A stretch of 33,793 bases of DNA, taken from NCBI GenBank assembly GCA_012838515.1, contig DUPA01000192.1:1-33793 (forward strand), read 5' to 3'. The notes below the pieces were generated by a model. It made no database searches, was not told the DNA's origin, and saw nothing but the letters and a program-made list of their open reading frames with translations. This stretch comes from Natronincola sp. (lineage in GTDB: Bacteria > Bacillota > Limnochordia > Darwinibacteriales > Darwinibacteriaceae). Each line of letters starts with the position of its first letter. The first letter of the stretch is position 1. The position numbers and the translations under genes were made by a program. This document shows positions 2,641-26,073 of this stretch, piece by piece.

Positions 2641-3540
2641 ATGTATTTTAGACAGCTCGAATCGTTTGTGGAGATCGCTAAACAAAATAGCTTTACAAAG
2701 GCAGCTGAAGTACTCTATCTTTCCCAGCCTACGTTAACAGGTCATATACAGGTCTTAGAAGGTAAACTTAAGACGGTCTTATTTAACCGTTCGGGCAAAA
2801 ATGTGACTCTAACCGAGGCCGGCGAGATTCTTTACAATCATGCGGTTAATATTCTTAATTTGAGGGAGCAGGCCTTTTACTGTTTATCGCAGTATCAAGG
2901 GAAGTTGCAAGGTGAATTAGCAATCGGTGCAAGCACCGTACTTCAAAATTACGTTTTACCTAGATTGCTCACGGACTTTAACAATGAATATCCTTCGGTC
3001 TGCTTCGAATTAAAACACTTCGATAGCGAGGCCGTAATCAGGGCGATCACATTCGGGTCCATGGATTTTGGCTTTATCGGAACAGATGTTGTGAATCCCG
3101 ATTTAGAGATGTGTCCAATCGGTAGCGATCGCTTAATTCTTATTACAGCTCCGGATATTTCTTTAGTGGGACGTGGCCTAAGTGTTGATGAGATTTTAAA
3201 TATGAGAATAATTATTAGGGAGCTGGGTTCAGCAACTAGAGGACTGTTTCAGCAAGCCTTAGAGAAGAAAGGTTTAGGATTAGAGGATTTAAACGTTGTT
3301 GCTAAAATAGAAAATCCCGAGACGATTAAAAAATGTGTGCGTGCCGGATTAGGTGTGGCAATACTTTCAGAACAGGTTGTTCAAGAAGATATAAAGTTCG
3401 GCTTACTAAACGGCTACACTTTTGATGATCTAGATTTAACGCGTAATTTCTATTTTGTAAGCCATAAAAAAAGGGTTCTAAATCCCATGGCTAGGGTCTT
3501 CAAAGAATTTACTCAAGATTATTTTAAAGAGGCTCCGTAA
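2641..3540 (+). CDS. LysR-family regulator, probably selenium-metabolism associated
   Basis: Typical LysR protein of 299 aa. A winged helix-turn-helix spans residues 1-60 (QLESFVEIAKQNSFTKAAE, then LSQPTLTGHIQVLE), followed by a CysB-type effector domain from about residue 90. Effector-domain signatures include GELAIGAST and DFGFIGTDV. The AAGGGGT site lies a few bases before the ATG. The protein resembles the LysR group known from Clostridia as selenium-metabolism associated, and its neighbours are a cysteine-desulfurase-type gene and the yedE-selD operon, which supports that. The last 17 bases overlap the tail of the convergent desulfurase gene. Its likely target is the divergent promoter region about 1.1 kb downstream; this is inference. 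Confidence 0.85.
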   Translation: MYFRQLESFVEIAKQNSFTKAAEVLYLSQPTLTGHIQVLEGKLKTVLFNRSGKNVTLTEAGEILYNHAVNILNLREQAFYCLSQYQGKLQGELAIGASTVLQNYVLPRLLTDFNNEYPSVCFELKHFDSEAVIRAITFGSMDFGFIGTDVVNPDLEMCPIGSDRLILITAPDISLVGRGLSVDEILNMRIIIRELGSATRGLFQQALEKKGLGLEDLNVVAKIENPETIKKCVRAGLGVAILSEQVVQEDIKFGLLNGYTFDDLDLTRNFYFVSHKKRVLNPMARVFKEFTQDYFKEAP

Positions 3541-4681
3541 GTATCTTCTGTAAACTGGAGATGGTGTAATCCATCTCTTTTTTTGTATTAAAATATCCCG
3601 GACTAAATCGTATAGTACCTTGGGGAAAAGTATCTACAGTTTTGTGAGCCGCCGGTGCGCAATGTAACCCACATCTGGTGCGTATGCCATACTCTTTTTG
3701 CAAAGTATAGGCCACATCGGCATTATCGTGTTTTAAACAATCAATAGAAATGAGAGACGTTCTTTCTTTCATTTCGGAAGAACCAATAATCCGAATGTTT
3801 GGCAGAGCTTTTAAGCCCCCTAGTAAGGCTTGGGTTAATTCAAGTTCGTGTAAACGAATGGCATCTATTCCGGTTTGCATAATGAATTTTAATGCTTGAT
3901 GGAGCCCTGCGATTCCCGGAAGGTTTATTGTTCCCGCTTCGAATTTATCGGGTAAGATCATCGGCTGTTCCTCTCTTTCCGATAGACTACCTGTGCCCCC
4001 GCAAATTAAAGGCTCTATTTTGTCAGCTAAAATGGGGCTAACCACAAAGCCTCCAATTCCTTGTGGACCTAAAAGGCTTTTATGTCCTGTAAAAGCAAGG
4101 GCATGGATTCCCGCATCGGTAAAGTTGATAGGTAATGAACCCAGTGTTTGGGAGCCGTCTACTATGAAATAAAGATCACTTTTAGCGCAAATTTGCCCAA
4201 CTTCTTTAAGGGGTAAAATGGTACCCGTAACATTAGAAGCATGGGTCATAATAATGGCTTTTGTATTACTCTTGATTAACTTAGGAATTGTTGCCACGTC
4301 AAGTTTTCCCTTACTATCGCAAGGAATTCTTGTGCATTCCACACCTATTTGGCTTATCTGGTTTAGGGGCCGCATTACGGCGTTATGCTCCACAGAAGAA
4401 ACGAGGCAATGATCCCCGGGCTTTAAAACCCCTTTAATTAAAATATTTAAACCGGTCGTAGCATTTACGGTGAAGATGATGTTTTCCGTTTTTGTGAAAT
4501 TTACTAAATCACAGATCATTTCCCTAGTTTCAAAGACCAATTCTTCGGCGGTAAAACCCACATTATAACCACTGCGATTAATATTAGTAGCTGATTTTTC
4601 CACGAAGTTTTTAATAGCCTCACCTACACCCGGGGCTTTTGGAAAGGATGTCGCTGCATTATCTAAATACACATCTCGCAT
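3524..4681 (-). CDS. Class V aminotransferase: cysteine desulfurase / selenocysteine lyase-type
   Basis: PLP enzyme of 385 aa that removes sulfur from cysteine, or selenium from selenocysteine, as an enzyme-bound persulfide or selenide. It begins with the family N-terminus YLDNAATSFPK. The PLP lysine is in TGHKSLLGPQG and the active-site Cys is in GLHCAPAAHK. This places it with the stand-alone cysteine desulfurase family often found next to selenium genes, not with IscS. The ORF track starts at 4681+84, but that start has no Shine-Dalgarno site; the ATG at 4681 has AAGGAAGTG about six bases upstream and gives the family N-terminus. It is divergent from yedE and convergent with LysR. Whether it prefers Cys or Sec cannot be read from sequence. 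Confidence 0.88.
   Translation of the reverse strand: MRDVYLDNAATSFPKAPGVGEAIKNFVEKSATNINRSGYNVGFTAEELVFETREMICDLVNFTKTENIIFTVNATTGLNILIKGVLKPGDHCLVSSVEHNAVMRPLNQISQIGVECTRIPCDSKGKLDVATIPKLIKSNTKAIIMTHASNVTGTILPLKEVGQICAKSDLYFIVDGSQTLGSLPINFTDAGIHALAFTGHKSLLGPQGIGGFVVSPILADKIEPLICGGTGSLSEREEQPMILPDKFEAGTINLPGIAGLHQALKFIMQTGIDAIRLHELELTQALLGGLKALPNIRIIGSSEMKERTSLISIDCLKHDNADVAYTLQKEYGIRTRCGLHCAPAAHKTVDTFPQGTIRFSPGYFNTKKEMDYTISSLQKILTEPL
3558..3584 (+). terminator. Intrinsic terminator of the LysR gene, inside the antisense coding region
   Basis: Perfect seven-base stem (GAGATGG / CCATCTC), six-base loop, then seven T. It begins 18 bases after the LysR stop and lies wholly inside the opposite-strand desulfurase gene. 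Confidence 0.85.
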
Positions 4682-4868
4682 TTTGCCACTTCCTTCAGTA
4701 AATCTAATCTGTACAGTATACTGCAATTGTACAATAGAACATACACACTTTACAATAATATCCATCTATAACACACTTATTATTATCGGAACTATCTATT
4801 ATACAGTGAACTTTTTCACAGGTATAATTGGTTTGTAAAGCTAAATTTTGGAAGAGGGGAGATAAATA
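4682..4868. promoter_or_regulatory. Divergent regulatory region of the selenium block, with stacked palindromes
   Basis: This 187-base region separates the desulfurase gene from yedE. On the plus strand TATACA (4800-4805), 17 bases and TATAAT (4823-4828) form a plausible promoter for yedE. Close to the desulfurase start, three short perfect palindromes overlap or adjoin: CTGTACAG (4709-4716), CAGTATACTG (4714-4723) and ATTGTACAAT (4726-4735). They contain two TGTACA half-units and are candidate operator sites, for instance for the nearby LysR protein. No strong minus-strand -35 box was found. Confidence 0.55.
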
Positions 4869-5975
4869 ATGCCTTTTAAGAATAAAGAAGCAAGATTAAT
4901 GCTGATGGTAGGGGCAATGGTGGCGATGCTTGCGGCAGTCTTGGTTGAACTGGGCAATCCGGCTAACATGGGGTTATGCATAGTTTGCTTTCTCAGGGAT
5001 ACTTCAGGCGCACTTGGTTTACATAGGGCAGGTGTAGTTCAATACATAAGGCCCGAAATTATTGGTATCAGTTTAGGGGCTTTTATAATGGCTTTCTCTA
5101 GGAGAGAATTTCGCTCCCGCGGAGGTTCGGCACCATTTACTCGTTTCATTTTAGGAATATTTGTGGTAATCGGCGCCTTAGTTTTTTTAGGGTGTCCTTT
5201 GCGGATGGTTTTGCGCTTGGCAAATGGAGACTTAAATGCACTTTTAGGTCTGGTCGGCTTTGTAGCCGGTATCTTTTCAGGGGTATTCTTTCTCAACCGT
5301 GGTTTCACACTTAAAAGGACTTATGCATCTGTTAATTTAGAAGGATACCTTTTTCCCGCTTTACAACTGGTTTTTTTGGTGTTACTAGTTGTTAGCCCCG
5401 CTTTTATCTTCTTTAGTGCAGAAGGACCCGGATCAATGAAAGCCCCTCTAATTATTGCGTTAGTGGCCGGTGTGCTTGTGGGTGCCGGCGCACAAAGGAG
5501 TAGGCTTTGTATGTCCGGTGGGATTAGGGATGCGATTTTGTTTAAAGACCCCCATTTGTTGTATGGATTCATGGGGATTTTCGCTGTGTCCTTGTTAGCG
5601 AATCTAATTTTAGGTAACTTTACCTTAGGATTTACCGGTCAACCCGTTGCCCACAATGATGGTTTATGGAACTTCTTAGGTATGATGCTAACCGGTTTTG
5701 GAGCAGTATTATTAGGGGGTTGTCCCTTAAGGCAGTTAATATTAGGAGCCGAAGGGAATATGGATTCGGTCATAACCATAATGGGTATGTATGTGGGGAC
5801 GGCAATTTCTCACAATTTTGGCTTGGCTGCATCGGGTGCAGGTGTTCCCTTAAATGGTAAAGTGGCGGTCATGATTGGTTTTGCTGTTGTTTTAACTATT
5901 GGAGTTTTAAATTCGGAGTATATATCTATTTTCAAAGTGAAGGGAGATGCGAATCTTGGAACTCATTCGAGTTGA
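4869..5975 (+). CDS. yedE: YedE-like putative selenium transporter
   Basis: Polytopic membrane protein of 368 aa of the YeeE/YedE (sulphur-transport repeat) family, in the subgroup tied to selenium metabolism. It has about ten hydrophobic segments in two related halves. Conserved cysteine motifs are visible: CIVCFLRD near residue 37, GCPLRM, RLCMSGGIRD and GCPLRQL. In the family such cysteines line the path of thiosulfate or a related chalcogen. GGGGAGAT precedes the ATG. The carrier gene overlaps its 3' end, followed by the DUF3343 gene and selD, so it heads a four-gene selenium operon. Transport of a selenium compound is inferred from this context. Confidence 0.88.
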   Translation: MPFKNKEARLMLMVGAMVAMLAAVLVELGNPANMGLCIVCFLRDTSGALGLHRAGVVQYIRPEIIGISLGAFIMAFSRREFRSRGGSAPFTRFILGIFVVIGALVFLGCPLRMVLRLANGDLNALLGLVGFVAGIFSGVFFLNRGFTLKRTYASVNLEGYLFPALQLVFLVLLVVSPAFIFFSAEGPGSMKAPLIIALVAGVLVGAGAQRSRLCMSGGIRDAILFKDPHLLYGFMGIFAVSLLANLILGNFTLGFTGQPVAHNDGLWNFLGMMLTGFGAVLLGGCPLRQLILGAEGNMDSVITIMGMYVGTAISHNFGLAASGAGVPLNGKVAVMIGFAVVLTIGVLNSEYISIFKVKGDANLGTHSS

Positions 5976-6431: not shown

Positions 6432-7478
6432 ATGACTGATGTTAGATTAACACAAATGACAAAGAAATCCGGTTGAGCAGCTAAACTAAGCCCTGAGGCT
6501 CTGTCTCAAGTTTTGGGACAGTTACAAACTTTTGATGATCAAAATTTGATTATCGGAATGGGTACGTCTGACGATGCCGCTGTTTATTTGTTAAATGAGC
6601 AGCAGGCAGCAGTATTAACCACGGATTTCTTTACGCCTATTGTAGATGATCCTTACACCTTCGGTCTTGTGGCCGCGGCCAATGCCCTTAGTGATGTTTA
6701 TGCCATGGGTGGTCAGCCCACGGTAGCATTGAATATAGTGTGCTTTCCCCCGAATTTGTCTTTGGAGATCCTCGGTGAAATTTTAAGGGGAGGGGCAGAT
6801 AAGGTAAGGGAAGCGGGAGCAGTCTTAGCCGGAGGTCATACAGTAGAAGATCCGGAACCTAAATATGGGTTAGCGGTGATGGGTTTAGTGCATCCCCAGA
6901 GGATGTTTACTAATACAAAGGCAAAAGTAGGGGATTTACTGGTTCTTACTAAACCTTTGGGAATAGGTATTTTAAATACCGCGATTAAAGCGGATTTGTT
7001 AAGTACTGAGGTTATCGAAAAAACTGTTAATACAATGGCTTATTTAAACAAGGATGCTTCTCAAGTAGCGGCTAAAGTCGGTATAGAAGGTTGTACCGAT
7101 ATTACCGGTTTTGGTTTTTTAGGTCATGCCCTAGAGCTCGCGGAAGGTAGTGGAGTGACTTTAGAGATTTGGAGCGAAAGGATCCCCATTATCTCACAAG
7201 CAATTGATCTCGCCAAAGACGGTATTATTCCGGGAGGAGCCTACCAAAATGCTAAGCATATTGGTGAAAAAGTGCGGTTTACCGAGGGAGTTCCCCAAGA
7301 AATCAGAGATATCATGTATGATCCGCAAACTTCAGGCGGTCTATTGATTTCGGTTCCTGAAGAAAAATCCGGTGAGCTTCTTACTTTGCTCAGTGAAAAG
7401 AATCAGACAGAATTTAGCGTAGTAGGCAGGGTCAAAGACAAAAGCCATAAGTGGCTTGAGGTACAACCAAACGAATAA
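6432..7478 (+). CDS. selD: Selenide, water dikinase (selenophosphate synthetase), selenocysteine-containing
   Basis: Makes selenophosphate from selenide and ATP, the Se donor for Sec-tRNA synthesis. The ORF track opens at a TTG at 6513, but the frame extends 27 codons upstream through one TGA (6474-6476) to an ATG at 6432, preceded by GAGGTGG. Read through, the N-terminus is RLTQMTKKSGUAAKLSPEAL, with U15 where SelD has its catalytic Cys/Sec and K18 as the conserved active-site lysine. Downstream motifs are canonical: GTSDDAAVY, TTDFFTPIVDDP, ANALSDVYAMGG, DITGFGFLGHA and DPQTSGGLL. Total length 348 aa, normal for the family. A hairpin suited to a bacterial SECIS follows the UGA. It is the last gene of the selenium operon. 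Confidence 0.93.
6474..6521 (+). promoter_or_regulatory. UGA(Sec) codon with candidate bacterial SECIS hairpin
   Basis: The TGA at 6474-6476 replaces the catalytic Cys codon of selD. Downstream, CTGTCTCAA (6501-6509) pairs with TTGGGACAG (6513-6521), nine pairs including one G-U, leaving a tiny loop that begins with G. In bacterial SECIS elements a G at the start of the apical loop is typical, as is a loop some 16-37 bases past the UGA; here it is 33. A competing hairpin (TGAG 6494-6497 with CTCA 6505-6508, loop also starting with G) is possible. Confidence 0.65.
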
Positions 7479-7603: not shown

Positions 7604-8449
7604 TTAAATTTCACCCAATTCTTCTTTAGAAAGCCCCGTAGTTTCACTAATAAGGTCAAGGTCTAATCCCTTTGACAGAAGCCTTTGAGCAATTTGCCGC
7701 GCTTTCTCTTCGTGCCCAACTTTTAATCCTTCCTTAATCCCTTCTTCTCGTGCAGAATTATGGCTACTAATCCAATCGCGAGTGGCTTTTTCCCTCAGCT
7801 CATAAAGGCGGCGTGCATTTTTATCTGCGGCTAGTTTTTCTAAGTCAGCATAAGCCCTTTTAATTTCTTTATCCTTCATGAAAATCTCCTCCCTTAACCG
7901 AAGAATGTCTTTACTACCCAAAAAACGAAGCCAGCGCATTAAGGAATCATCTGGATTAACGGAAATCTGCCTAATCTTATTAAGCTCAAGAAAGTGAATT
8001 TCTAAAACATCCGTTAGCCTTTCAAAAGTTTCTTTTTCTAGAAGGTGAAATACATTGTGTACCTTCTCATTTGAAAAATAAGAAAAATCCAAAATGTTGA
8101 TAGATATAGTTTTGCTTAATTCACGGTAATCTTGGCCTTTTTCCAGTTGTGCTGTGAAAAGTTTACTCCAATAATATAAGGATCTTTTTTCAATGTTTCT
8201 CTTGTTTAGGATTTGTACCTCGATATTAATGTGGTGATCCTCGGATGTTAAGGCACGTACGTCTAAGCGACATCCTTTCAGTCCAATTAGTTCAGGGGTG
8301 AGCTCCGTCTCCAACAAAGTGAGATCTTCGATGGGGGCGTTAATATCTTTAGATAAAATTGCATTGAGTAGGTTAATTAGATTATACTTTCTCTCATTTT
8401 TTCCAAAGACAAATTGAAACGCTACATCGTTCATTGGTCTTAAGTTCAA
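7604..8449 (-). CDS. Rpn-family PD-(D/E)XK nuclease (recombination-promoting nuclease / putative transposase)
   Basis: 281-aa protein of the Rpn / PDDEXK_2 family. The N-terminus LRPMNDVAFQFVFGKNE is typical. The nuclease core is seen as the Asp of GCRLDVRA followed by IEVQI, corresponding to the D and (D/E)XQ catalytic positions, with SLYYWSKLFTAQL behind. The C-terminal part is charged and helical (EEGIKEGLKVGHEEKARQIAQRLL), as usual for the family. Start is a TTG with GAAAGGA seven bases upstream. A good promoter (TTGCCA, 17 bases, TAAAAT) lies 40-70 bases ahead on the same strand. Known Rpn proteins are DNA endonucleases that raise recombination. No terminal repeats flank it, so it is not a complete transposon. 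Confidence 0.87.
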   Translation of the reverse strand: MNLRPMNDVAFQFVFGKNERKYNLINLLNAILSKDINAPIEDLTLLETELTPELIGLKGCRLDVRALTSEDHHINIEVQILNKRNIEKRSLYYWSKLFTAQLEKGQDYRELSKTISINILDFSYFSNEKVHNVFHLLEKETFERLTDVLEIHFLELNKIRQISVNPDDSLMRWLRFLGSKDILRLREEIFMKDKEIKRAYADLEKLAADKNARRLYELREKATRDWISSHNSAREEGIKEGLKVGHEEKARQIAQRLLSKGLDLDLISETTGLSKEELGEI

Positions 8450-8635: not shown

Positions 8636-9514
8636 TTGGGTGAGATTGTAGTGGAAAATGTCACCAAGGATTTTGGTGACACAAGGGCCTTAAATAACAT
8701 CATTTTAAGCATAAAACCCAATAAGATTCATGGCTTACTCGGAAGAGAAGGTGCTGGGAAAAGTACTTTACTAAACCTGATTACAGCGAGAGTTCGTCCG
8801 ACGAGGGGAGAAATAAGGGTAAATGGCAAAAACGTATGGGAGAACCCCCAAGCGCTCAGTCAAATTTATTACATGAGCGAGCAGGCTCTTTTACCGGCTA
8901 ATCGCAGGGTTACTCAGCTTTTTAATTGGACCGGCTATTTTTACCCCAAATTTGATCTTACCTATGCCGAAGAATTGGCTAATAAATTCGGTTTAGAACT
9001 TAAGAAAAGTTATGGCGAGCTTTCGGCAAGCTATAAAACAATATGCAAAATAGTTCTAGCCTTAGCAAGTCATGCTCCAATAATGATCTTAGATGAACCC
9101 ATTTTGGATCTAGACGATGGCCAACGAAGTCTTTTATACGCAGAGATACGGGATAATTACGCTCGAAGACCAAAGACCATAATTATTTCAACCCATCTTA
9201 TTGAGGAAGTATCGGAGCTCATAGAAGAAGTGATCATTATAAATTATGGGGAAATTGTCATTAGAAAATCCATAGAATATCTTCTTGAACAAGCTTATAC
9301 CGTTTCGGGCCCGAAAACTGAGGTCGAAAAATACCTTGTGGGCAAAAAGTACATCCAAGAAGAGATTACTGGCGAGAGTAAATCCGTTACCGTGCTTGGT
9401 GAGTATGAAAACCAGAAAGAGCATGGGGATTCAAAACTTAATTTCAGCCGAGCTGAGATCAAAAAACTGGTTAATGGTTTAACGGAGGGGGTTGACGATT
9501 GGGTAGAATATTAG
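8636..9514 (+). CDS. ABC transporter ATP-binding protein with atypical signature motif
   Basis: ATPase subunit of about 292 aa, probably working with the adjacent six-helix permease. Walker A is GREGAGKST (Arg-Glu where Pro-Asn is common) and Walker B is IMILDEPILDLD, followed by the H-loop ISTHL. The signature motif is LSASYKT instead of LSGGQ/LSGGMK. The C-terminal 80 residues form an accessory region. The ORF track starts at a TTG at 8627 touching the AAGGGG; the TTG at 8636 has AAGGGG nine bases upstream and gives a standard N-terminus (EIVVENVTKDF), so I prefer it. It resembles the YtrB/YhcH-like exporters often paired with a GntR regulator, but no such regulator is nearby. Confidence 0.82.
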   Translation: MGEIVVENVTKDFGDTRALNNIILSIKPNKIHGLLGREGAGKSTLLNLITARVRPTRGEIRVNGKNVWENPQALSQIYYMSEQALLPANRRVTQLFNWTGYFYPKFDLTYAEELANKFGLELKKSYGELSASYKTICKIVLALASHAPIMILDEPILDLDDGQRSLLYAEIRDNYARRPKTIIISTHLIEEVSELIEEVIIINYGEIVIRKSIEYLLEQAYTVSGPKTEVEKYLVGKKYIQEEITGESKSVTVLGEYENQKEHGDSKLNFSRAEIKKLVNGLTEGVDDWVEY

Positions 9515-16729: not shown

Positions 16730-17920
16730 ATGGAAAATCGGTTTCTTTTGTTAATAAGATATATCGTTATAACAATAGTCGTGGGAACAATGGTTTTATT
16801 TCCTCAAGGTATCCTTTCCTCGAACCACATTGTTTTAGCCCTTTTGCTTATTATCAACTCCCAGCTCCGTTATTTTGTATTCCGAAAAAGGACTTTATTC
16901 TTATGTTTTTCTTTAGTTGCGGAATGCACTCTGGGTGCGAAGATTATTTTAGATTACAATATACTACTACTTCCCATCTTTACTTTAACTATCTATGACG
17001 GCCTTCTTTTTATGAAGACTAAGCTCAAGTATCTTTGCGCGTCTATCTTTCTTGCAACGTTTTTGTTTTTAGGAATGGGACTCCCTTGGGAGGTGAAAAC
17101 CATTGTATATATTTCAATGTTCATCAATGTACTGGTCCTATCACATATCCTTGAACTTAAAAATAGGCAATACGAGTTGGACAAGCTTTACCAAGAATCC
17201 AGGAGAGTGGAGGATGAACTCCTTAAAACCAACGAGGACTTGGAGATATATGCCGAATCGATTAAGGAACTTACCGTATTACAAGAACGCAATCGTATTT
17301 CCCGGGAAATACATGATAGCGTTGGCCATAGCTTGTCAACAATAATTGTTCAACTAGGGGCTATCGAACAAATTGCGGGAAGGGATGGCCAAAAAGCCGC
17401 TATTATGGCAGCTAAATTAAGATGCTTTGCTAAGTCAGGCCTAGAAGAAATCAGAACAGCACTGAGGGAATTGAAACCAAGGGATCTTGACAATTTAAGG
17501 ACTTTGCTATTAATAGAAGCTCTCACAACTAACTTTAGTAAGCTCACGGGTATAGAGGTGTATTTTAAGTTTTCTCAAGGCAAATGGGAACTGGAGGAGT
17601 CAATTTCATTAGTCATTTACCGGGCGATACAAGAATTTTTATCAAATTCGGCCCGTCATGGGCAACCTAAGAAGATAAAGATATTTCTCCATTTCGATAG
17701 CGAAGTGGTAATTTTAACAATGGAAGATGACGGTTTCGGCGTTGAAGAAATCGAACCGGGCATGGGCTTAAGAGGGTTAGCTGACAGGGTGCATGAATTA
17801 GGCGGAAAAATATCTTACAAAAGTGGGCCGGGCAAAGGGTTTTTCTTAAGGATTTCTTTAGAACGCGGGTTTGTTAGCATGGGTCAAAGGGAGGGTAGCG
17901 AATGGAAAAAATCCGTTTAG
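16730..17920 (+). CDS. NarL-type sensor histidine kinase (LnrJ-like)
   Basis: 396-aa membrane kinase. The first 140 residues hold about five or six hydrophobic segments with short loops and no large extracellular sensor, so it probably senses within or near the membrane. A coiled linker (ELDKLYQESRRVEDELLKTNEDLE) leads to the HisKA_3 box with phospho-His near residue 195 (RISREIHDSVGHSLS). The ATPase domain shows SARHGQ, DDGFGV and GMGLRGL. GGGAGG precedes the ATG. It overlaps the response regulator gene by 19 bases. Together with the downstream ABC-2 genes it resembles LnrJ of B. subtilis, but that match is by layout and type, not a search. Confidence 0.88.
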   Translation: MENRFLLLIRYIVITIVVGTMVLFPQGILSSNHIVLALLLIINSQLRYFVFRKRTLFLCFSLVAECTLGAKIILDYNILLLPIFTLTIYDGLLFMKTKLKYLCASIFLATFLFLGMGLPWEVKTIVYISMFINVLVLSHILELKNRQYELDKLYQESRRVEDELLKTNEDLEIYAESIKELTVLQERNRISREIHDSVGHSLSTIIVQLGAIEQIAGRDGQKAAIMAAKLRCFAKSGLEEIRTALRELKPRDLDNLRTLLLIEALTTNFSKLTGIEVYFKFSQGKWELEESISLVIYRAIQEFLSNSARHGQPKKIKIFLHFDSEVVILTMEDDGFGVEEIEPGMGLRGLADRVHELGGKISYKSGPGKGFFLRISLERGFVSMGQREGSEWKKSV

Positions 17921-18549
17921 CGATCATAGATGATGAGAAACTCATAAGAGAAGGTCTACGAATTATACTTACTACATATGAAGATATTGAAGTAGTCGCG
18001 GAAGGGGAAAATGGTTTAGAGGCACTAAAAATATGTGATAGTCATGATATAGATTTAGTCTTGATGGACATTAGAATGCCGATGTCCGATGGAGTGCAAG
18101 GCACTCAATTAATTAAGGAGAAGCATTCCAAAACCAAGGTATTGATTTTAACCACATTTAAAGATACAGAATACATTCAAGACGCCTTAAAAATGGGTGC
18201 GTCGGGTTATTTACTCAAGGACAGTTCACCTCAGTTAATTTATGAAGGAATAAAAGCGGCCGTTTCAGGTAATATTGTAATGCATCCAAAGGTTGCCCAT
18301 AATATTTTAAACTATTCGCTCCAGGGGGGAAATGCCGCGGACTTTTGCACCGAACACGGACTAACCGCTAAAGAATGTACATTGATTAAATTAATCGCAA
18401 CGGGTTTATCTAATCGCGAAATAGCAGAAAAGCTTTATTTATCTGAAGGAACCATAAAGAACTATGTAAGCACTATTTTAACTAAGTTGAATTTGAGAGA
18501 TCGGACCCAACTCGTTGTCCTTGCATATAAAAGTGGTATCGTTAGGTAA
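17902..18549 (+). CDS. NarL/LuxR-type response regulator (LnrK-like)
   Basis: 215-aa regulator. The receiver domain has the acidic pair in IIDDEK, phospho-acceptor Asp56 (LVLMDIRMP), the conserved Thr in LTTFKD and Lys106 (GYLLKDSS). A LuxR-type helix-turn-helix follows from about residue 145 (LTAKECTLIKLIATGLSNREIAEKL, then LSEGTIKNYVSTILTKL). It overlaps the kinase gene, so the pair is cognate. The probable target is the promoter of this operon or the downstream exporter genes; no operator was identified. Confidence 0.92.
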   Translation: MEKIRLAIIDDEKLIREGLRIILTTYEDIEVVAEGENGLEALKICDSHDIDLVLMDIRMPMSDGVQGTQLIKEKHSKTKVLILTTFKDTEYIQDALKMGASGYLLKDSSPQLIYEGIKAAVSGNIVMHPKVAHNILNYSLQGGNAADFCTEHGLTAKECTLIKLIATGLSNREIAEKLYLSEGTIKNYVSTILTKLNLRDRTQLVVLAYKSGIVR

Positions 18550-18692
18550 ATTGGATAATTTTTGAAATAACTTTGTGAAGTTTATATGAACTTTAGGCTT
18601 TGTTGCAGGCTTTAGTATACGGGGCTTGAAGTATTTGCATATCGTGGAGGTAAATTTTGTAGGACAATAAAAATTGCAGGGGCGTGATAAAT

Positions 18693-19238
18693 GTGAAACG
18701 ATGTTTTCCTCTGGTTGCTCTAGTGCTCTGCGTGCTTTTATTTCAGCCGGTAATTGGAGAGCGGGCCGTGGGGGCCACAAGTACCTATGTGTCTTATAAT
18801 AACGATAAATATGGATTCTCACTCAAATATCCAATAGACTGGGTTTTACACGAAGGTTACATGGGGACAATATTTATTGCTTTATCGCCATTCGAAGATG
18901 GCAATGATTTATTTCAGGAAAATATAAATGTTATCACTGAGGATCTACAGGGGTATGAATTCACAATTGAAGAGTATCTAGAATTTACATTATCTGAATT
19001 ACAGGATATGGTTGATAACCTCAAAGTGATCAGTCGCGGAAAACGTCATATTGCCGGCCAACAAGGTAAAGTTATTGTTTTTTCAGGTGAACAATCTGGA
19101 TTCGAATTTCAATGGATGCAGCTTTTCTTTATCTCCGGAACCAACATTTATGTGATTACGTATACTGCTCAAGAAAACAAATACGATAAACATTTACCAA
19201 CCATAGAAAACATCATTAATTCTATAAAGTTCAACTAA
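18693..19238 (+). CDS. Secreted PsbP-like protein
   Basis: About 181 aa with a clear signal peptide (KRCFPLVALVLCVLLFQPV, likely cleaved near AVGA). The mature part resembles PsbP / DcrB-like proteins: YGFSLKYPIDWVLHEG at the start, a central IAGQQGKVIVFSG, then FISGTNIYVITYTAQ and the closing PTIENIINSIKF. These folds are common in extracytoplasmic proteins of Clostridia, mostly of unknown role. GTG at 18693 has AGGGG at a proper distance; the track's GTG at 18684 is too close to it. It lies between the response regulator and the membrane protease, suggesting a place in the sensing or export system. Confidence 0.75.
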   Translation: MKRCFPLVALVLCVLLFQPVIGERAVGATSTYVSYNNDKYGFSLKYPIDWVLHEGYMGTIFIALSPFEDGNDLFQENINVITEDLQGYEFTIEEYLEFTLSELQDMVDNLKVISRGKRHIAGQQGKVIVFSGEQSGFEFQWMQLFFISGTNIYVITYTAQENKYDKHLPTIENIINSIKFN

Positions 19239-19266
19239 AATTATAATATAGCAAAAGCGTTTACCT

Positions 19267-19293
19267 AAGTAGTGACTTTAGTCACTACTTTTT
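19267..19293 (+). terminator. Terminator-like hairpin after the PsbP-like gene
   Basis: AAGTAGTGACT and its exact complement are separated by two bases and followed by further T, 28 bases after the stop. It may reduce read-through into the protease and ABC genes. Confidence 0.65.
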
Positions 19294-19376
19294 GTTACTC
19301 TAGGCAATGGTTTTTTGACGTTAAGGAACATATACTTAGACTTGAAATCATTATTTATGGAGATGGGGGTTATATC

Positions 19377-20549
19377 GTGGAAAAGATAGTAAAGGAACCA
19401 AAAGTATCACGGGCAGCCTCATTGTTTTTTATTGCCCTTTTAGGATTGGTTTTAATAGGTGGTCCGGTGCAATACTTTTTTGAACTATGGGGTCTGGCCA
19501 TCACAGAATTTCTACTCATTTTTATTGCCGTATTATTTATTAAAACCCGAAAGTGGGATTTAAAAGAAGTATTTCCCATGAGAAGACCTAAATTACGGCA
19601 GCTTTTGGCTGTGCTAGTGTCCTGGTGGGGAACACTTTTAGGCATGCTTTTAATTAACCAGATCATTATGTACTTTTTCCCTGTGGCCATGGCGCAAACC
19701 GAAGGAGGTCTCACCGATCTCTTTAAAACCCTCCCATTACCTTTGTCTTTGTTTATCGTGGCGGTTCTACCTGCTATAGGTGAGGAGATCCTCTTTAGAG
19801 GTGCCATTCAATACAATTTTAAGGACAAAAATAAATGGGCTACGGTTTTATGTGTTGGTTTACTCTTTGGACTTTTTCACCTTGATCCCACTAGAATTCT
19901 AGGCACTGCTCTTTTAGGTATGGTGGCAACCTATATAATGTATGAGACTAAAAACCTTGTCTTACCCATGTTCTTGCATCTTGTGAACAATGCTTTCGGA
20001 ATCTCCGCGACCTTTTTATCGGGTGATCTTGCCCACTATACAATTTCACATCCGGTTACTGCATTAAGTAGTATGTTCATGGCAAGCTGGATGGCTCCCC
20101 TTTTAATTTTGGCCGGCAGTCGTTTGCTTAAAACAAAAGAAGAGAGATTGGAGCAACCGATCAGCAATAAAGTAAGTGCAACTGTCATCGTGTTATGCCT
20201 TGTCATTTTGGCAGGGGGTATAATCGTACCCGTGATTGCAGATTTTGAACCTGTGTTCCAAATGAACTTTTCTAATGAACAACTTACGGAAAATATAGAA
20301 CACATTGGTGTGTTTTCCCCTGAGAAAATGGGAAAGCACATGTTAGAGCTGGCTGTTCAGTGCGAAAATGCGGAAACGTCGGTAGTAATGACCAACGGTT
20401 TAGGCGAAACTGTGTATAGTCTTTCAGGCGATAAAATGCGTGATTCGGGCTGGATCGACTTGACTGCAGACGATTATGTTCTCACTATAAATTGTGATTA
20501 TGATGGAGTTAGTGAAGCATCGGTTTATTTTGAAATCTTAATTTACTAA
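19377..20549 (+). CDS. CPBP-family (CAAX-type) intramembrane metalloprotease with C-terminal outer domain
   Basis: 390-aa membrane protein. The ABI/CPBP core shows EEILFRG (Glu136-Glu137, Arg141), FGLFH with His168, and HLVNN with His201, the expected metal-site residues, within about eight membrane helices. After a last helix (VIVLCLVILAGGIIVPVI) there is a region of about 95 residues, probably outside the cell and beta-rich (SVVMTNGLGETVYSL, SVYFEILIY), which ordinary CPBP proteins lack. Start GTG 19377 follows GGAGATGGGGG; the track's earlier start at 19272 falls in the preceding terminator. The ABC ATPase starts 27 bases after its stop, so it is probably co-expressed with the exporter. 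Bacteriocin processing or immunity is a possible role. Confidence 0.82.
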   Translation: MEKIVKEPKVSRAASLFFIALLGLVLIGGPVQYFFELWGLAITEFLLIFIAVLFIKTRKWDLKEVFPMRRPKLRQLLAVLVSWWGTLLGMLLINQIIMYFFPVAMAQTEGGLTDLFKTLPLPLSLFIVAVLPAIGEEILFRGAIQYNFKDKNKWATVLCVGLLFGLFHLDPTRILGTALLGMVATYIMYETKNLVLPMFLHLVNNAFGISATFLSGDLAHYTISHPVTALSSMFMASWMAPLLILAGSRLLKTKEERLEQPISNKVSATVIVLCLVILAGGIIVPVIADFEPVFQMNFSNEQLTENIEHIGVFSPEKMGKHMLELAVQCENAETSVVMTNGLGETVYSLSGDKMRDSGWIDLTADDYVLTINCDYDGVSEASVYFEILIY

Positions 20550-20576
20550 AGATCCAAAGCAAGGAGAGTTAGTGGA

Positions 20577-21515
20577 ATGAATTACATCGAAGTAAAAAAT
20601 ATTTATAAGCAGTTTGACAGCAAAATTGTTTTGGAGAACATTTCCTTTGATATACAAAAAGGCGATATCTTTGGATTTATTGGTCCTAACGGCGCGGGGA
20701 AAACCACCCTAATTCGCATTATGACTGGGTTACTGGACGCTAATCAAGGTTCTGTTATTATGGGTGGCTTCGAAGTTAAAGGTGAAGCTATTAAAGCTAA
20801 GCGATTACTCGGTTTAGTACCGCAAGAACTTGCCATTATTGAAGGTGTTTCTGCCTACGACAATTTAGAGTTTTTCGGAGCCCTGTATGGACTTAGGGGC
20901 AAGAATTTAAAAGGAAAAATAGGAGAAGCGTTGGAGTTTGTTGGCCTTACTGATAAGACAAAGGAAAAAGTTAAAAAGTTCTCAGGGGGAATGAAGCGCA
21001 GACTTAACTTGGCCGCGGCCATAATGCATGAGCCTGAAATATTAATTTTAGATGAACCAACTGTGGGTATCGATCCCCAGTCAAGAAACCATATCTTTGA
21101 TTTTATTAAGCATATTAATCAAGAAAAAGATACAACAGTTTTATACACATCACATTACATGGAAGAAGTGGAGCATTTGTGTGACAACATTTTCATAATT
21201 GACGAGGGAAAAGAGATTGCTTATGGGTCTAAGGCTTCGGTGAAATCCATGATTAGCAACAATAATAAGGTACATGTACAGTTGGATAACTTTGAACCAT
21301 CGCTGCTTGAGCCTATTGAAGCTTTAGATGCAATAGTGAATGTATCTACTGATCATGAAGGTCTTCACCTTCTGGTAAAGGCAGAGGAATTCAAACTGGC
21401 TGATTTATTAAAGGTTTTGGAACAAAATAGCGCTGTTATTAAATCAGTTAGCGTGGACGAGCCCAATCTTGAAGAAGTCTTTTTAAGTCTAACAGGTAAA
21501 AAACTCAGGGACTAG
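20577..21515 (+). CDS. ABC exporter ATP-binding protein (LnrL-like)
   Basis: 312-aa ATPase of the ABC-2 drug-export class. Walker A GPNGAGKTTL, Q-loop region VPQELAI, signature FSGGMKRRLNL, Walker B ILILDEPTVGID and H-loop YTSHYMEE are all standard. The C-terminal 90 residues are an accessory domain ending LEEVFLSLTGKKL, usual for this class. AAGGAGAG precedes the ATG. Two permease genes follow directly. Length and arrangement match LnrL of the B. subtilis linearmycin-resistance transporter; the substrate here is unknown. Confidence 0.9.
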   Translation: MNYIEVKNIYKQFDSKIVLENISFDIQKGDIFGFIGPNGAGKTTLIRIMTGLLDANQGSVIMGGFEVKGEAIKAKRLLGLVPQELAIIEGVSAYDNLEFFGALYGLRGKNLKGKIGEALEFVGLTDKTKEKVKKFSGGMKRRLNLAAAIMHEPEILILDEPTVGIDPQSRNHIFDFIKHINQEKDTTVLYTSHYMEEVEHLCDNIFIIDEGKEIAYGSKASVKSMISNNNKVHVQLDNFEPSLLEPIEALDAIVNVSTDHEGLHLLVKAEEFKLADLLKVLEQNSAVIKSVSVDEPNLEEVFLSLTGKKLRD

Positions 21516-21526
21516 GGGGGATTAAA

Positions 21527-22696
21527 TTGACAGTTTTGGCTTATGTGAGGTTAGCGTTGAAATCGATTATAAAAGAGCTACCGGCTTTTGTAATTGGATT
21601 CGCTATTTTCCCCATCTTTATAGGTCTTTCCATAGGGTTTGCTCAAAAAAATATGTTTTCACCTAAAATCAATGAACCCCTTTTTACCATCTCGGTTATG
21701 GATGAAGATAATTCATGGGAATCGCAAGAACTGATTGCATTTCTACAATCGGAGCAAGTCAGTCAGATCCTCACCGTTGATGTTCATGGAGACGCGGACT
21801 ATGTCTTATCAATTCCGGATGGGTATGGTTTGAGCTTAGTTGGTGCAGGTGAAGCAACTATTAAAGTCGAGCTTAGCAAAGATGCCTCCAGAAGGTTAGG
21901 TAATACCTTAGCATCTATTGTGGAGATGTTTAATACCGAATTTAGTAGGGGCTTAGTCCGCGAACAAAAAATTGCTAAACTTCAAGAAGAATTACAAGTT
22001 ACAGAAGTGGGTGAGAGGATCCGGGATAACTTAACTAAGATCACACCGACTGCAGCTTTGCAGACAAAAATACACAGGGTGAAAAAAAGCTTTACCTCCA
22101 CAGAGTATTATTCCATCAAGTTCTTGCTTTTTGTGTTCAGTATGCTGCTATTGGCAATGATTAATGCAGAAGAACTTGAAAAGAAAATGGGTATAGCGGA
22201 TCGTGTTCTCTCAACACCCGTGACTCGAATTATGCTCTTTAATAGTTCCTTTTTATCAGGTTATATTCAGATTTTAGTATGCACTTTTTTATATGTTGGT
22301 GCTTATAAAGTCACCGGGCTTTCATTTTCCGGCTCCATACCTCTTTTAATTTTAATTGTTTTGGTACAAGGTCTATTAGTAGCCATCATATCGCTGGTAC
22401 TTGTCACTTTCTTTGAAAAGAAAGTTGCTTCTTTGTTAGTGCAAGTTGTTTTGTATTTCACTTTAATCTTCGGAGGTCTAGTGGGCCCATTGGATGAATG
22501 GACGGGGATCTCCATATTCAGGCTCTTAGGGAAGGTCAAGTTGGACTTTTTAATATCTGAACCCTATCATAATTACGTGCTTGATAATAGCTTCGGTTCG
22601 GTGATGGGGCCACTTCTTTTGAGCTTTGCAGTGACGGTTGTTTTGTATGGACTAGCGATTACAGCGGTTAAATTGGGAGTAGGTGAAAAAAGATGA
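21527..22696 (+). CDS. ABC-2 type permease (LnrM-like)
   Basis: 389-aa permease. One N-terminal membrane helix (FVIGFAIFPIFIGLSIGFA) is followed by an outer domain of about 160 residues, then five helices in the C-terminal half (FLLFVFSMLLLAM, IPLLILIVLVQGLLVAII and others). This one-plus-five layout is that of ABC-2 exporters. It starts at a TTG with GGGGGGA upstream, 11 bases after the ATPase gene, and overlaps the second permease by four bases. Confidence 0.87.
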   Translation: MTVLAYVRLALKSIIKELPAFVIGFAIFPIFIGLSIGFAQKNMFSPKINEPLFTISVMDEDNSWESQELIAFLQSEQVSQILTVDVHGDADYVLSIPDGYGLSLVGAGEATIKVELSKDASRRLGNTLASIVEMFNTEFSRGLVREQKIAKLQEELQVTEVGERIRDNLTKITPTAALQTKIHRVKKSFTSTEYYSIKFLLFVFSMLLLAMINAEELEKKMGIADRVLSTPVTRIMLFNSSFLSGYIQILVCTFLYVGAYKVTGLSFSGSIPLLILIVLVQGLLVAIISLVLVTFFEKKVASLLVQVVLYFTLIFGGLVGPLDEWTGISIFRLLGKVKLDFLISEPYHNYVLDNSFGSVMGPLLLSFAVTVVLYGLAITAVKLGVGEKR

Positions 22697-23796
22697 ACTT
22701 TTTAAGCTTAATTAGGGTGAATATCAAAAAGATCATAAAGACTCCCATTCATTTATTGTTTTTTCTGTTGCTACCTTTGGGAACTATTCTTTTCACCACG
22801 GTTATTATAGACGGAATGGATTCGGTGGGGGGGTTTTCCGCTTCCGAGGTGGTGTTTAATAGTGATGATCGTGGTACTTTTGGGGAATCATTTCTAGCTC
22901 CTTTCGCCGATTCCCAAGAGGTTTTTGAAGACGATCTAGATGGTGCTTTGCATCTCCTAGAACGGAATAAGGTTTTAGCAGTTTATAATATTCCATCTGA
23001 CTTTACGAAACGGATTCAGGCAGATGAAAAACCGGTTATAGAGGTTTATAAGCGGGAAGAAGGAAATTTAACAGTCACTTTAGAGGCAAGACTGGAGACT
23101 GCCTTGAACCGATTACTAGAAGAAAGAATTTTGCTGGATAATGGGGTAATTAATGCTATAGATGAATTGGACGTTTTGCAAACGGAAATTATCGTGGAAA
23201 GGGATGCAGAAGTACTCTCTAATGATTTTAACGTAGGCATTATGCTTTTAATCATGTTTGTTTTCTACGGTTCCGTGTCCATGGTAAGTGAATTAAATGA
23301 ATACAGGAAGGCAAGGGTCTTAGCCCGTGCCATTTCAACGCCCAATTGGGGAGGTACAATACTTGCATCGCTGATAATTGCATTTTTCTTGGTCCAATTT
23401 GGCATTAACGCTGTTGTGTTAGTTTGCGGCAAGCTAATTTTGGGTATGTCCATAACGAATTTCCCTGTTGTGATGGTGAATCTGGCCTTAGCGAGCTTAT
23501 TTTCCATAACTTTTTCATTAGCCATCGTAAGATTAATAAAAAATGAATCGGTAGTCTCCATTATCACCGCAATATCTGCATTGGGTAGCTCTTATTTGGC
23601 CATATTTACAGATGTGAAGATTTTTCCCCACGCAACTAAGTGGCTTGTGAACCTTGCTAAATTTGTGCCGCAATATTGGGTGTTTGAAAGTGTTGAGGAA
23701 GGTGTATTATTTCCACATGTTTTCATTCTTTTGCTGATGATAGTTGCTTTGTTTTCCGCGGGGTGTTATAAATTAAGAGGCTTTGTCAATGAATAG
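22693..23796 (+). CDS. ABC-2 type permease (LnrN-like)
   Basis: 367-aa permease with the same layout as its upstream neighbour: an N-terminal helix (HLLFFLLLPLGTILFTTV), an outer domain of about 150 residues rich in acidic residues, and five helices near the C-terminus (VGIMLLIMFVFYGSVSMVS, HVFILLLMIVALFSAGCY). ATGA overlap with the previous gene implies translational coupling, so the two permeases probably form a heterodimer. An inverted repeat spans its stop codon and reaches the tRNA promoter. Confidence 0.87.
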   Translation: MNFLSLIRVNIKKIIKTPIHLLFFLLLPLGTILFTTVIIDGMDSVGGFSASEVVFNSDDRGTFGESFLAPFADSQEVFEDDLDGALHLLERNKVLAVYNIPSDFTKRIQADEKPVIEVYKREEGNLTVTLEARLETALNRLLEERILLDNGVINAIDELDVLQTEIIVERDAEVLSNDFNVGIMLLIMFVFYGSVSMVSELNEYRKARVLARAISTPNWGGTILASLIIAFFLVQFGINAVVLVCGKLILGMSITNFPVVMVNLALASLFSITFSLAIVRLIKNESVVSIITAISALGSSYLAIFTDVKIFPHATKWLVNLAKFVPQYWVFESVEEGVLFPHVFILLLMIVALFSAGCYKLRGFVNE

Positions 23797-23810
23797 TGTT
23801 CCATTGACAA
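23783..23810. repeat. Inverted repeat spanning the permease stop and the tRNA -35 box
   Basis: TTGTCAAT and ATTGACAA are exact complements separated by 12 bases. There is no T-run, so it is not an ordinary terminator. The right arm contains the TTGACA of the tRNA promoter. Confidence 0.6.
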
Positions 23811-23832
23811 TGACGGTGGTAGCAATTATAAT
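23804..23832 (+). promoter_or_regulatory. Perfect-consensus promoter of tRNA-Arg
   Basis: TTGACA (23804-23809), 17-base spacer, TATAAT (23827-23832). Transcription should start near 23839, about two bases before the mature tRNA end. Confidence 0.85.
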
Positions 23833-23840
23833 GTTTTTAG

Positions 23841-23917
23841 GCGCCCGTAGCTCAGCTGGATAGAGCGTTTGACTTCGAATCAAAAAGTCACAGGTTCGAA
23901 TCCTGTCGGGCGTGCCA
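23841..23917 (+). tRNA. tRNA-Arg (anticodon TCG)
   Basis: 77 bases fold as a full cloverleaf: acceptor GCGCCCG / CGGGCGT (first pair G-U), D-stem GCTC / GAGC, anticodon stem TTTGA / TCAAA with loop CTTCGAA, five-base variable region, T-stem ACAGG / CCTGT with TTCGAAT loop, discriminator G and encoded CCA. It reads CGA codons (and others by wobble). Confidence 0.97.
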
Positions 23918-24235: not shown

Positions 24236-24507
24236 TCAGATGAGAAACCGTTGATGCGGAAATAAAGGCGATGATGAGTACACAGAGAGCTTGGGTTGCT
24301 GAGAACCAAGTTACAAACAAGTCGTCAAATGGACCGCGGAGGGCGTGATGAAAGGCATTTTGCCCAGTATCTCGCGACGTGGGGCATACGTGAGTTGCCG
24401 AGGATATGATAGTATCCTGCTAAGTGCATGAAGATTCTTCATGAATCAAGGTGGTACCGCGAGCTTACTAGCCCGTCCTTGACTATATGTCTAAGGCGGG
24501 TTTTTTT
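24236..24507 (+). ncRNA. T-box leader, tryptophan-specific
   Basis: tRNA-sensing leader that controls the trp operon by terminating when tRNA-Trp is charged. The T-box sequence AAGGTGGTACCGCG is at 24448-24461. Stem I carries a distal hairpin CTTGG / CCAAG (24290-24310), and the specifier codon is most likely TGG at 24330-24332 (context AAATGGACC), matching Trp. The terminator follows: CCCGTCCTT with AAGGCGGG (one bulge), then seven T (24501-24507). The antiterminator bulge reads TGGT, so its last base faces the tRNA discriminator. Confidence 0.94.
24472..24507 (+). terminator. T-box-controlled terminator of the trp operon
   Basis: CCCG(T)CCTT pairs with AAGGCGGG, one bulged T, twelve-base loop, then TTTTTTT. 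Its left arm competes with the antiterminator that contains the T-box sequence. Confidence 0.88.
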
Positions 24508-24588: not shown

Positions 24589-26073
24589 ATGTTTTACCCA
24601 TCTTTACCCACGGCCGTTAAATTGGCTTCTTCAGAAAACTATGGGTGTATACCCATCAGCCTCGAAATGAACTCCATTTCCATTACACCCATGGAAGTCT
24701 TGGGCAAACTCAAAGCCCAAGGAAAGCCTTGTTACCTTTTTGAATCTGCGGAGGTAAATCACGAAAGGGCACGCTACACTTTTTTAGGGTATGACCCTTG
24801 TTTAGAATTGTCTTGCCTCGATGGCAAGATCACTTTAAGGCGAGGGGCTACCTCCGAAACCATGGTCACCAATCCCAGCAAACTAATACGTGAAATCATC
24901 CAACAGAATAAAAGCCCGTTGATAAAAGGCTTCCCACCTTTCACGGGAGGCTTAGTCGGTCACTTTTCCTTTGAGTATATCCGATACTCAGAACCGAGTT
25001 TAGATTTAAACGCACCTGATCCCGTTGGCTTTAATGATACTGAGCTAATGGTTTTTGAGCAGGTGATTGTCTTTGATCACTTACTGAATAAGATTCTTTT
25101 AATAGCCAATGTAAAATGCGATCAGATCAAAAGTCATTATCCTTCGGTAACAGCATCTTTAATTGATCTTAAAGAGCTAATATTGTCAACTAGCCAAGTC
25201 CCTGAAGAATACGGGGAAGTAACTTCTTCATTCAAAATGTTATTTAGTGAAGAAGAATTTTCTCGAAAGATTGAAAAAGCTCAAGATGCAATTAAACGGG
25301 GTGACTTTAATCAAGTTGTTTTAGCCAATTCTTTAGAAGCTGATTACGAAGGAAGTCTGCTTGGAACCTACGGGATTTTACGCACCATTAACCCTTCGCC
25401 ATATATGTTCTATTTAGGCAATAGTGATGTTGAGATCGTCGGAGCCTCGCCGGAAACGCTTGTCAGGGTAGAAGAAAATGTTGTTCGAACCTTTCCTTTA
25501 GCAGGAACCAGACCAAGGGGGAGAGACCAAGTCGAAGATAAAGAATTCGAAGCTGAACTTTTAGCAGATCCCAAGGAAGTGCACGAACACGAAATGCTTG
25601 TGGACCTAGGACGCCAGGATCTTAATAAAGTGTGCGTGCCCGAAACTATTAAAGTTGCAAAGAAGATGACGGTGGAAAGGTTTTCCCATGTTATGCATCT
25701 CGGATCTACTGTGGAAGGAAACTTGAGAAGTGGGTTTGATGCACTTCATGCCTTAGAAGCCACTTTGCCCGCGGGCACTTTGTCCGGTACTCCCAAAGTC
25801 AAGGTCTGTCAATTAATCAATGATCTGGAGGGCCAAAAGAGGGGAATTTATGGAGGCGCAATTGGTTATCTGGGTTTTAACGGTAATTTAGATACATGTA
25901 TTGCCATTCGCTTAGCTTATCAAAAGAACGGAAAAGTCTATGTGCGTACCGGCGCGGGAATAGTGAGCGAAAGCGATCCGCGAAAAGAATATGAAGAATG
26001 CAATCATAAAGCAAAAGCAATGCTTGAAGCGTTTAAGATCCAGAAAACCTTCTTAAAGGGGGTAGGGTCATGA
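24589..26073 (+). CDS. trpE: Anthranilate synthase component I
   Basis: 494-aa chorismate-using subunit that makes anthranilate, first step of tryptophan synthesis. The N-terminal domain carries the tryptophan-feedback segment [15 protein letters not shown], a variant of the LLES motif. The C-terminal chorismate-binding domain is complete: [73 protein letters not shown] and [16 protein letters not shown] lies before the ATG. It heads the operon and overlaps trpD by four bases. The glutaminase partner TrpG is not encoded in the window. Confidence 0.96.

What the first reader, a model, noticed from the sequence alone, without database searches (positions are those of the whole stretch)
16730..23796. 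Expanded Lnr-like sensing and export operon with a secreted protein and a membrane protease
A NarL-type kinase without an outer sensor domain, its regulator, an ABC ATPase and two ABC-2 permeases reproduce the LnrJKLMN plan (sensing and export of membrane-active polyketides). Here a secreted PsbP-like protein and a CPBP protease with an outer domain are inserted. These extras could capture, process or confer immunity to a membrane-targeting molecule, forming a possible new variant of antibiotic-sensing system.
Basis: partly seen in the sequence, partly recalled or inferred. Interest (0 to 1): 0.6.

Follow-up and report, generated by a model that had tools for sequence, protein, structure and literature searches.

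The report
Drug-sensing export operon with added protease
This is a common bacterial sensor-and-exporter system for membrane-attacking compounds in which a membrane-embedded protease gene has been slotted between the sensor's DNA switch and the exporter genes, something that has happened at least twice more in related systems, while the neighbouring secreted-protein gene is probably a bystander.

Summary
All seven genes are real. The core is an ordinary five-gene system: NarL/LiaR-type kinase, regulator, ABC ATPase and two ABC-2 permeases. I found the same core in about 75 Clostridium, Clostridioides, Romboutsia and Bacillales loci. The PsbP gene occurs in no other locus. A CPBP gene occurs in two others: a Bacillales genome (between regulator and ATPase, control region duplicated in front of each) and C. 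tetanomorphum (after the permeases).

The main new result is a conserved tandem operator, GTGACTNNAGTCAC-8 nt-GTTACTNNANNNAAT. In clostridial orthologues it lies between regulator and ATPase. A search with this pattern alone recovers the system. In the window it is at 19272-19308, upstream of CPBP and not of the ATPase, 68 nt from the CPBP start (usual operator-to-ATPase distance 56-77 nt). It is the only perfect dyad in the 2.16-Mb genome. So the locus is kinase-regulator-(PsbP), operator, then a regulator-controlled CPBP-ATPase-permease-permease unit. CPBP is inside the regulon; PsbP is outside.

Verdict: new variant of a known kind. What CPBP does (immunity, kinase modulation, peptide processing) is open.

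The parts
16730..17920 (+). Histidine kinase (HisKA_3, NarL/LiaS/LnrJ type), membrane helices with short loops, phospho-acceptor His195 in REIHDSVGHSL
   Evidence: His195 invariant in a 10-sequence alignment with orthologues
17902..18549 (+). NarL/LuxR-type response regulator; nearest solved relative VraR/LiaR
   Evidence: 53-60% identical to clostridial orthologues
18693..19238 (+). Secreted PsbP_2-like protein with signal peptide; outside the operator-controlled unit, probably a passenger
   Evidence: 45.9 bits; absent from all other homologous loci; solitary homologue in G006
19267..19290 (+). Perfect 11-bp inverted repeat followed by T-rich stretch: first operator dyad, possibly also a terminator of kinase-regulator-PsbP transcripts
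   Evidence: (z -3.9)
19272..19308 (+). Tandem operator GTGACTTTAGTCAC-TACTTTTT-GTTACTCTAGGCAAT, predicted response-regulator binding site
19315..19342 (+). Putative promoter downstream of operator (TTGACG/TAGACT by scan; or activator-dependent with -10 TATACT as in orthologues)
   Evidence: consensus match only
19377..20549 (+). CPBP/Rce1-like intramembrane protease with intact motifs and C-terminal outer all-beta domain; first gene of the regulated unit
   Evidence: (NF041647 1e-44)
20577..21515 (+). ABC ATPase (DrrA type)
   Evidence: 51-60% identical to clostridial orthologues
21527..22696 (+). ABC-2 permease 1
   Evidence: 22-29% identical to orthologues
22693..23796 (+). ABC-2 permease 2, overlaps permease 1 by 4 nt
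   Evidence: 23-35% identical to orthologues

Best explanation
A Lnr-like sense-and-export system in which an intramembrane protease has become the first output gene. The kinase, whose only input domain is its membrane helices, responds to a membrane-active compound or membrane damage and phosphorylates the LiaR-type regulator. Two regulator dimers bind the tandem dyad at 19272-19308 and switch on CPBP-ATPase-permease-permease from a promoter just downstream. The ABC transporter protects the membrane by export or remodelling. CPBP is co-induced, most likely as an added protective or immunity factor, or as a modulator of the kinase through its membrane part. PsbP lies upstream of the operator and is probably an unrelated gene read through from the regulator. 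Shown here: the genes, operator conservation, its position before CPBP with the spacing kept, and independent CPBP additions elsewhere. Inferred: regulator binding, activation, the signal, and what CPBP cleaves or touches.
For: Orthologous HK-RR-ABC-P-P loci carry the operator between RR and ABC. A pattern-only search of 208 genomes of the C. mobile family gave 11 sites in 9 genomes; 8 sites lie exactly between RR and ABC of this system. The perfect dyad occurs once in the 2.16-Mb genome, in front of CPBP; in the window shuffles give 0.01 matches within 2 mismatches. Operator to next gene: 56-77 nt to ABC in 12 of the 15 loci measured, 68 nt to CPBP in the window, 69 nt to the inserted lipoprotein gene in L074. 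A Bacillales locus (L200) has CPBP between RR and ABC with about 130 nt of control region duplicated before CPBP and before ABC; C. tetanomorphum has CPBP 3' of P2. PF02517 has 4-10 copies per genome, so CPBP as 2 of 5 same-strand inserts is unlikely by chance. In B. subtilis lnrLMN is driven by an LnrK-dependent promoter beyond a terminator after lnrK (PMC7472640).
Against: No binding, expression or induction data exist. CPBP appears in only 3 of about 75 loci, in different positions and subfamilies, so single events could be neutral insertions; the chance estimate is post hoc. CPBP homologues closest to the window's (36-38%, G081, G020, G021, G006) stand alone without an operator. The window promoter has a poor -35.
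Confidence: 0.7

Rival explanations
1. CPBP is a neutral passenger: it landed between operator and ATPase, is co-expressed, and has no role in the system.
For: Present in 3 of about 75 loci; nearest CPBP homologues are solitary; other inserts at the slot include a transposase (L146) and an unrelated lipoprotein gene (L074).
Against: Motifs intact; operator-to-gene spacing kept; independent CPBP additions in L200 (with duplicated control region) and L063.
Confidence: 0.25
2. CPBP tunes the kinase rather than protecting the cell: the membrane protease binds the kinase's membrane helices and gives feedback on signalling, as Abx1 does with CovS.
For: Abx1 (PF02517) binds the CovS membrane region and antagonises it (PMC3578759); LnrLMN damps LnrJK signalling by an unknown route (PMC7472640).
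Against: Abx1 is a different subfamily and CovS a different kinase type; nothing tested here.
Confidence: 0.2
3. One reading: a seven-gene sensing operon in which PsbP captures a compound and CPBP processes it.
For: All genes on one strand, with PsbP between regulator and operator.
Against: PsbP absent from all other homologous loci; operator/terminator-like dyad between PsbP and CPBP; solitary PsbP homologue in a relative.
Confidence: 0.1
4. A maturation-and-export cassette like SagE-SagGHI: CPBP removes a leader from a peptide that the transporter then exports.
For: Same set of parts (CPBP, ATPase, two ABC-2 permeases); both permeases hit SagH weakly (1e-7 and 2e-5); SagE is the suspected leader protease (PMC4513790).
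Against: No precursor or YcaO-type modification gene in the window; orthologues lack CPBP yet keep sensor and exporter.
Confidence: 0.08

Closest known systems
LnrJKLMN (YfiJKLMN) of Bacillus subtilis
   Same: Kinase without outer domain, NarL-type regulator, ATPase and two permeases in the same order; transporter unit behind its own regulator-dependent control region (PMC7472640, PMC4672918)
Uncharacterised five-gene orthologues in Clostridium, Romboutsia and Clostridioides difficile
   Same: Same five genes (ATPase 52-60% identical) and the same tandem operator
   Different: Operator sits directly before the ATPase; no CPBP or PsbP at that place
LiaR/VraR/CesR-type regulators
   Same: Closest solved regulators are VraR/LiaR; the CesR box TCAGHCTnnAGDCTGA has the same 16-bp CTnnAG layout (PMC4447274)
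   Different: No LiaF gene here; kinase is multi-helix; target is an ABC-2 exporter
NF041647 ABC permease/CPBP fusion (NatB-like)
   Same: Closest NCBIfam match of the CPBP part (1e-44) is the CPBP half of this fusion
   Different: Here CPBP is a separate protein with an outer beta domain, next to different permeases
SagE-SagGHI of streptolysin S clusters
   Same: CPBP + ATPase + two permeases; weak SagH similarity
   Different: No precursor peptide or modification enzymes; sensor pair present instead

Membership tests
LnrJKLMN-type sensing/export system | Gene order kinase-regulator-ATPase-permease-permease | tested here: met
   Order kept, interrupted by PsbP and CPBP
LnrJKLMN-type sensing/export system | Kinase with membrane helices but no outer sensor domain | tested here: met
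   Hydropathy
LnrJKLMN-type sensing/export system | Regulator-dependent promoter between regulator and transporter genes | tested here: inconclusive
   Conserved tandem operator found, but no binding or expression data; in the window it precedes CPBP
LnrJKLMN-type sensing/export system | Sequence orthology to B. subtilis LnrJKLMN | not tested
   Named B. subtilis sequences were not reached; unnamed Bacillales five-gene loci match the permease and kinase profiles
LnrJKLMN-type sensing/export system | Induction by linearmycins or amphotericin-like polyenes | not testable with these tools
   Needs a reporter assay
LiaFSR three-component system | LiaF inhibitor gene next to kinase and regulator | tested here: not met
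   No LiaF-like gene among the window's neighbouring ORFs
BceRS-AB peptide-sensing system | Bce-type (FtsX) permease with large outer domain | tested here: not met
   Both permeases are ABC2_membrane_3
CPBP (type II CAAX) protease family PF02517 | EExxxR, FxxxH and HxxxN/H motifs in a multi-helix protein | tested here: met
   73 bits vs 22.4 cut-off; motifs EEILFR, FGLFH, HLVNN
PsbP_2 family PF18933 | Score above gathering cut-off | tested here: met
   45.9 vs 27 bits
SagE-SagGHI toxin maturation cassette | Precursor peptide and YcaO/dehydrogenase genes nearby | tested here: not met
   None in the window; rest of the genome not searched for them

The most novel reading that the evidence does not exclude
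CPBP intramembrane proteases are a recurrent fourth arm of Lnr-like systems, taken up repeatedly at the regulator's operator. Here the protease acts at the membrane on the attacking peptide or on the kinase itself, making this a sense-export-proteolysis response rather than sense-export alone.
Probability: 0.3. Interest if true: 0.6.

Novelty: new variant of a known kind. Interest (0 to 1): 0.42.

Why it matters
It gives a concrete DNA target for an uncharacterised sensor-exporter family that is present in Clostridium and C. difficile and resembles the B. subtilis polyene sensor. It also shows that the hairpin after the regulator gene can be the operator rather than only a terminator. Repeated CPBP additions at one regulated slot offer a direct way to learn what bacterial CPBP proteins do beside ABC exporters, which is poorly understood.

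Tried and rejected
Reading the hairpin at 19267-19290 as a plain terminator splitting the locus: rejected as the whole story, because the dyad and its second site are conserved in orthologues. Seven-gene operon: rejected because PsbP lies outside the operator. PsbP as capture protein: no second locus. Single-sequence AlphaFold of PsbP (pLDDT 37) and CPBP (48): only the CPBP outer beta domain is usable; Foldseek on PDB gave no match below 1e-3. PDB sequence search of PsbP found nothing convincing, and of CPBP and permease 2 nothing. C. difficile DraRS as the orthologue: set aside, because DraS has an outer sensor domain (PMC10601699). A search for the guessed C. difficile locus tags found no relevant paper. 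Extra operator hits in L148 (G488) and L140 (ribosomal S4 gene, G612) are probably chance, since the reversed-pattern controls give about as many stray hits.

Full report
What is there. The seven ORFs exist as described, on the + strand. Pfam and NCBIfam give a HisKA_3 kinase, a NarL/LuxR-type regulator, a PsbP_2-like secreted protein, a CPBP/Rce1-like protease, a DrrA-type ATPase and two ABC2_membrane_3 permeases. The kinase N-terminus is all membrane helices with short loops. The CPBP start should be GTG 19377, behind a good ribosome site. CPBP keeps the EExxxR, FxxxH and HxxxN motifs and ends in about 100 outer residues modelled as beta strands (low confidence, single sequence).

The core is common, the extras are not. 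One scan of 85,000 species with the ATPase and neighbourhood reading found the same kinase-regulator-ATPase-permease-permease set in C. intestinale, C. mobile, Romboutsia weinsteinii, Clostridium sp. CCUG 7971 and four Clostridioides records, with no PsbP or CPBP between regulator and ATPase. A permease profile in 399 Bacillales genomes found matches in 79. I read 62 of those loci, counting the two reached through handles. In the pooled table, 70 loci have the sensor pair directly beside the ATPase and 5 have genes between: the window (PsbP, CPBP), L063 (two reversed unrelated genes), L074 (a lipoprotein), L146 (a REP-type transposase) and L200 (a CPBP). PsbP appears only in the window. In relatives of the window genome, the best PsbP and CPBP homologues are solitary genes. 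An ATPase tree puts the window copy as a deep branch inside the Clostridiaceae/Peptostreptococcaceae group (99/98 support).

The operator. The gap between regulator and ATPase in the clostridial orthologues holds a tandem element: GTGACTNNAGTCAC, 8 nt (7 in C. tetanomorphum), then an imperfect second copy GTTACTNNANNNAAT, followed by a -10-like sequence. In the window the element is complete at 19272-19308, but it is upstream of CPBP. In 33.8 kb the 16-bp dyad is expected 0.01 times within two mismatches; within the 2.16-Mb genome it is the only perfect copy. Searching 208 genomes of the C. mobile family with the pattern alone gave 11 sites in 9 genomes, and 8 of them are in front of the ATPase of this same system. 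One more, in G635 (L143), lies before an ATPase and a NatB-like permease and hints at a wider regulon. In G300 (L146), a transposase gene sits between regulator and operator while the operator stays 57 nt from the ATPase. The distance from operator to next gene is 56-77 nt in 12 of the 15 loci measured, 68 nt to CPBP in the window and 69 nt to the inserted lipoprotein gene of L074. The 22-bp repeat of the two sites suggests two dimers bound on one DNA face (inference). The regulator's nearest solved relatives are VraR/LiaR, and the CesR box has the same CTnnAG layout (PMC4447274).

What this means for the finding. The apparent terminator after PsbP is also the operator dyad. The locus is best read as kinase-regulator-(PsbP), operator, CPBP-ATPase-permease-permease. 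In B. subtilis too a terminator and a regulator-dependent promoter lie between lnrK and lnrL. Published truncations show that 20 nt at about -163 to -144 are essential (fragments of 147 and 127 nt ending at -16; PMC7472640), and a 143-nt fragment starting just after the terminator failed (PMC4672918). I infer, without having the B. subtilis sequence, that the same overlap may occur there.

CPBP additions elsewhere. In Bacillales genome G828 (L200) a PF02517 gene lies between regulator and ATPase, and about 130 nt of control region are duplicated before CPBP and before the ATPase. In C. tetanomorphum a CPBP without the outer domain follows permease 2. With 4-10 PF02517 genes per genome, CPBP as 2 of 5 same-strand inserts is unlikely by chance (about 1e-4 if 0.3% of genes are CPBP; post hoc estimate).

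Function. Most likely steps: a membrane-active compound is sensed by the kinase helices, the regulator is phosphorylated, the operator is bound, and CPBP plus the exporter are induced. Only the sequence-level parts are shown. For CPBP three roles remain open: immunity, kinase tuning (Abx1-CovS precedent, PMC3578759), or peptide processing (SagE precedent, PMC4513790; no precursor or YcaO-type gene in the window). Mere passenger status cannot be excluded.

Limits.

Noticed in passing
L200 (G828:C2:407500-418200), 3504-4819: CPBP gene between regulator and ATPase of a Bacillales five-gene system, with about 130 nt of control region duplicated before each.
   Followed up: yes
L143 (G635:C9), operator at 5620: A second copy of the tandem operator, in front of an ATPase and a NatB-like permease (NF041647 permease half), in a genome that also has the main system.
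   Followed up: partly
L147 (G123:C2), operator at 9324: A weak operator match (3 mismatches) between a NarL-type kinase-regulator pair and a small membrane protein with no Pfam match.
   Followed up: no
L074, 7822-8995: Dyad followed at operator-like spacing by a 355-aa secreted lipoprotein without a Pfam family, then the ATPase; another gene in the same slot.
   Followed up: partly
window 6432-7478: selD reads as a selenoprotein: in-frame TGA at 6474 in the active-site motif SGUAAK; the ORF list starts it too late at TTG 6513. YedE-like (4869-5975) and class V aminotransferase (3524-4765) genes lie nearby.
   Followed up: partly
window 24242-24483: T-box leader upstream of the trp operon (trpE at 24589).
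   Followed up: no
window 23804-23917: Perfect sigma-70 consensus promoter (TTGACA-17-TATAAT) just after permease 2, driving tRNA-Arg(TCG); no terminator was seen between permease 2 and the tRNA.
   Followed up: no
window 7604-8449: PDDEXK_2-family transposase on the minus strand.
   Followed up: no
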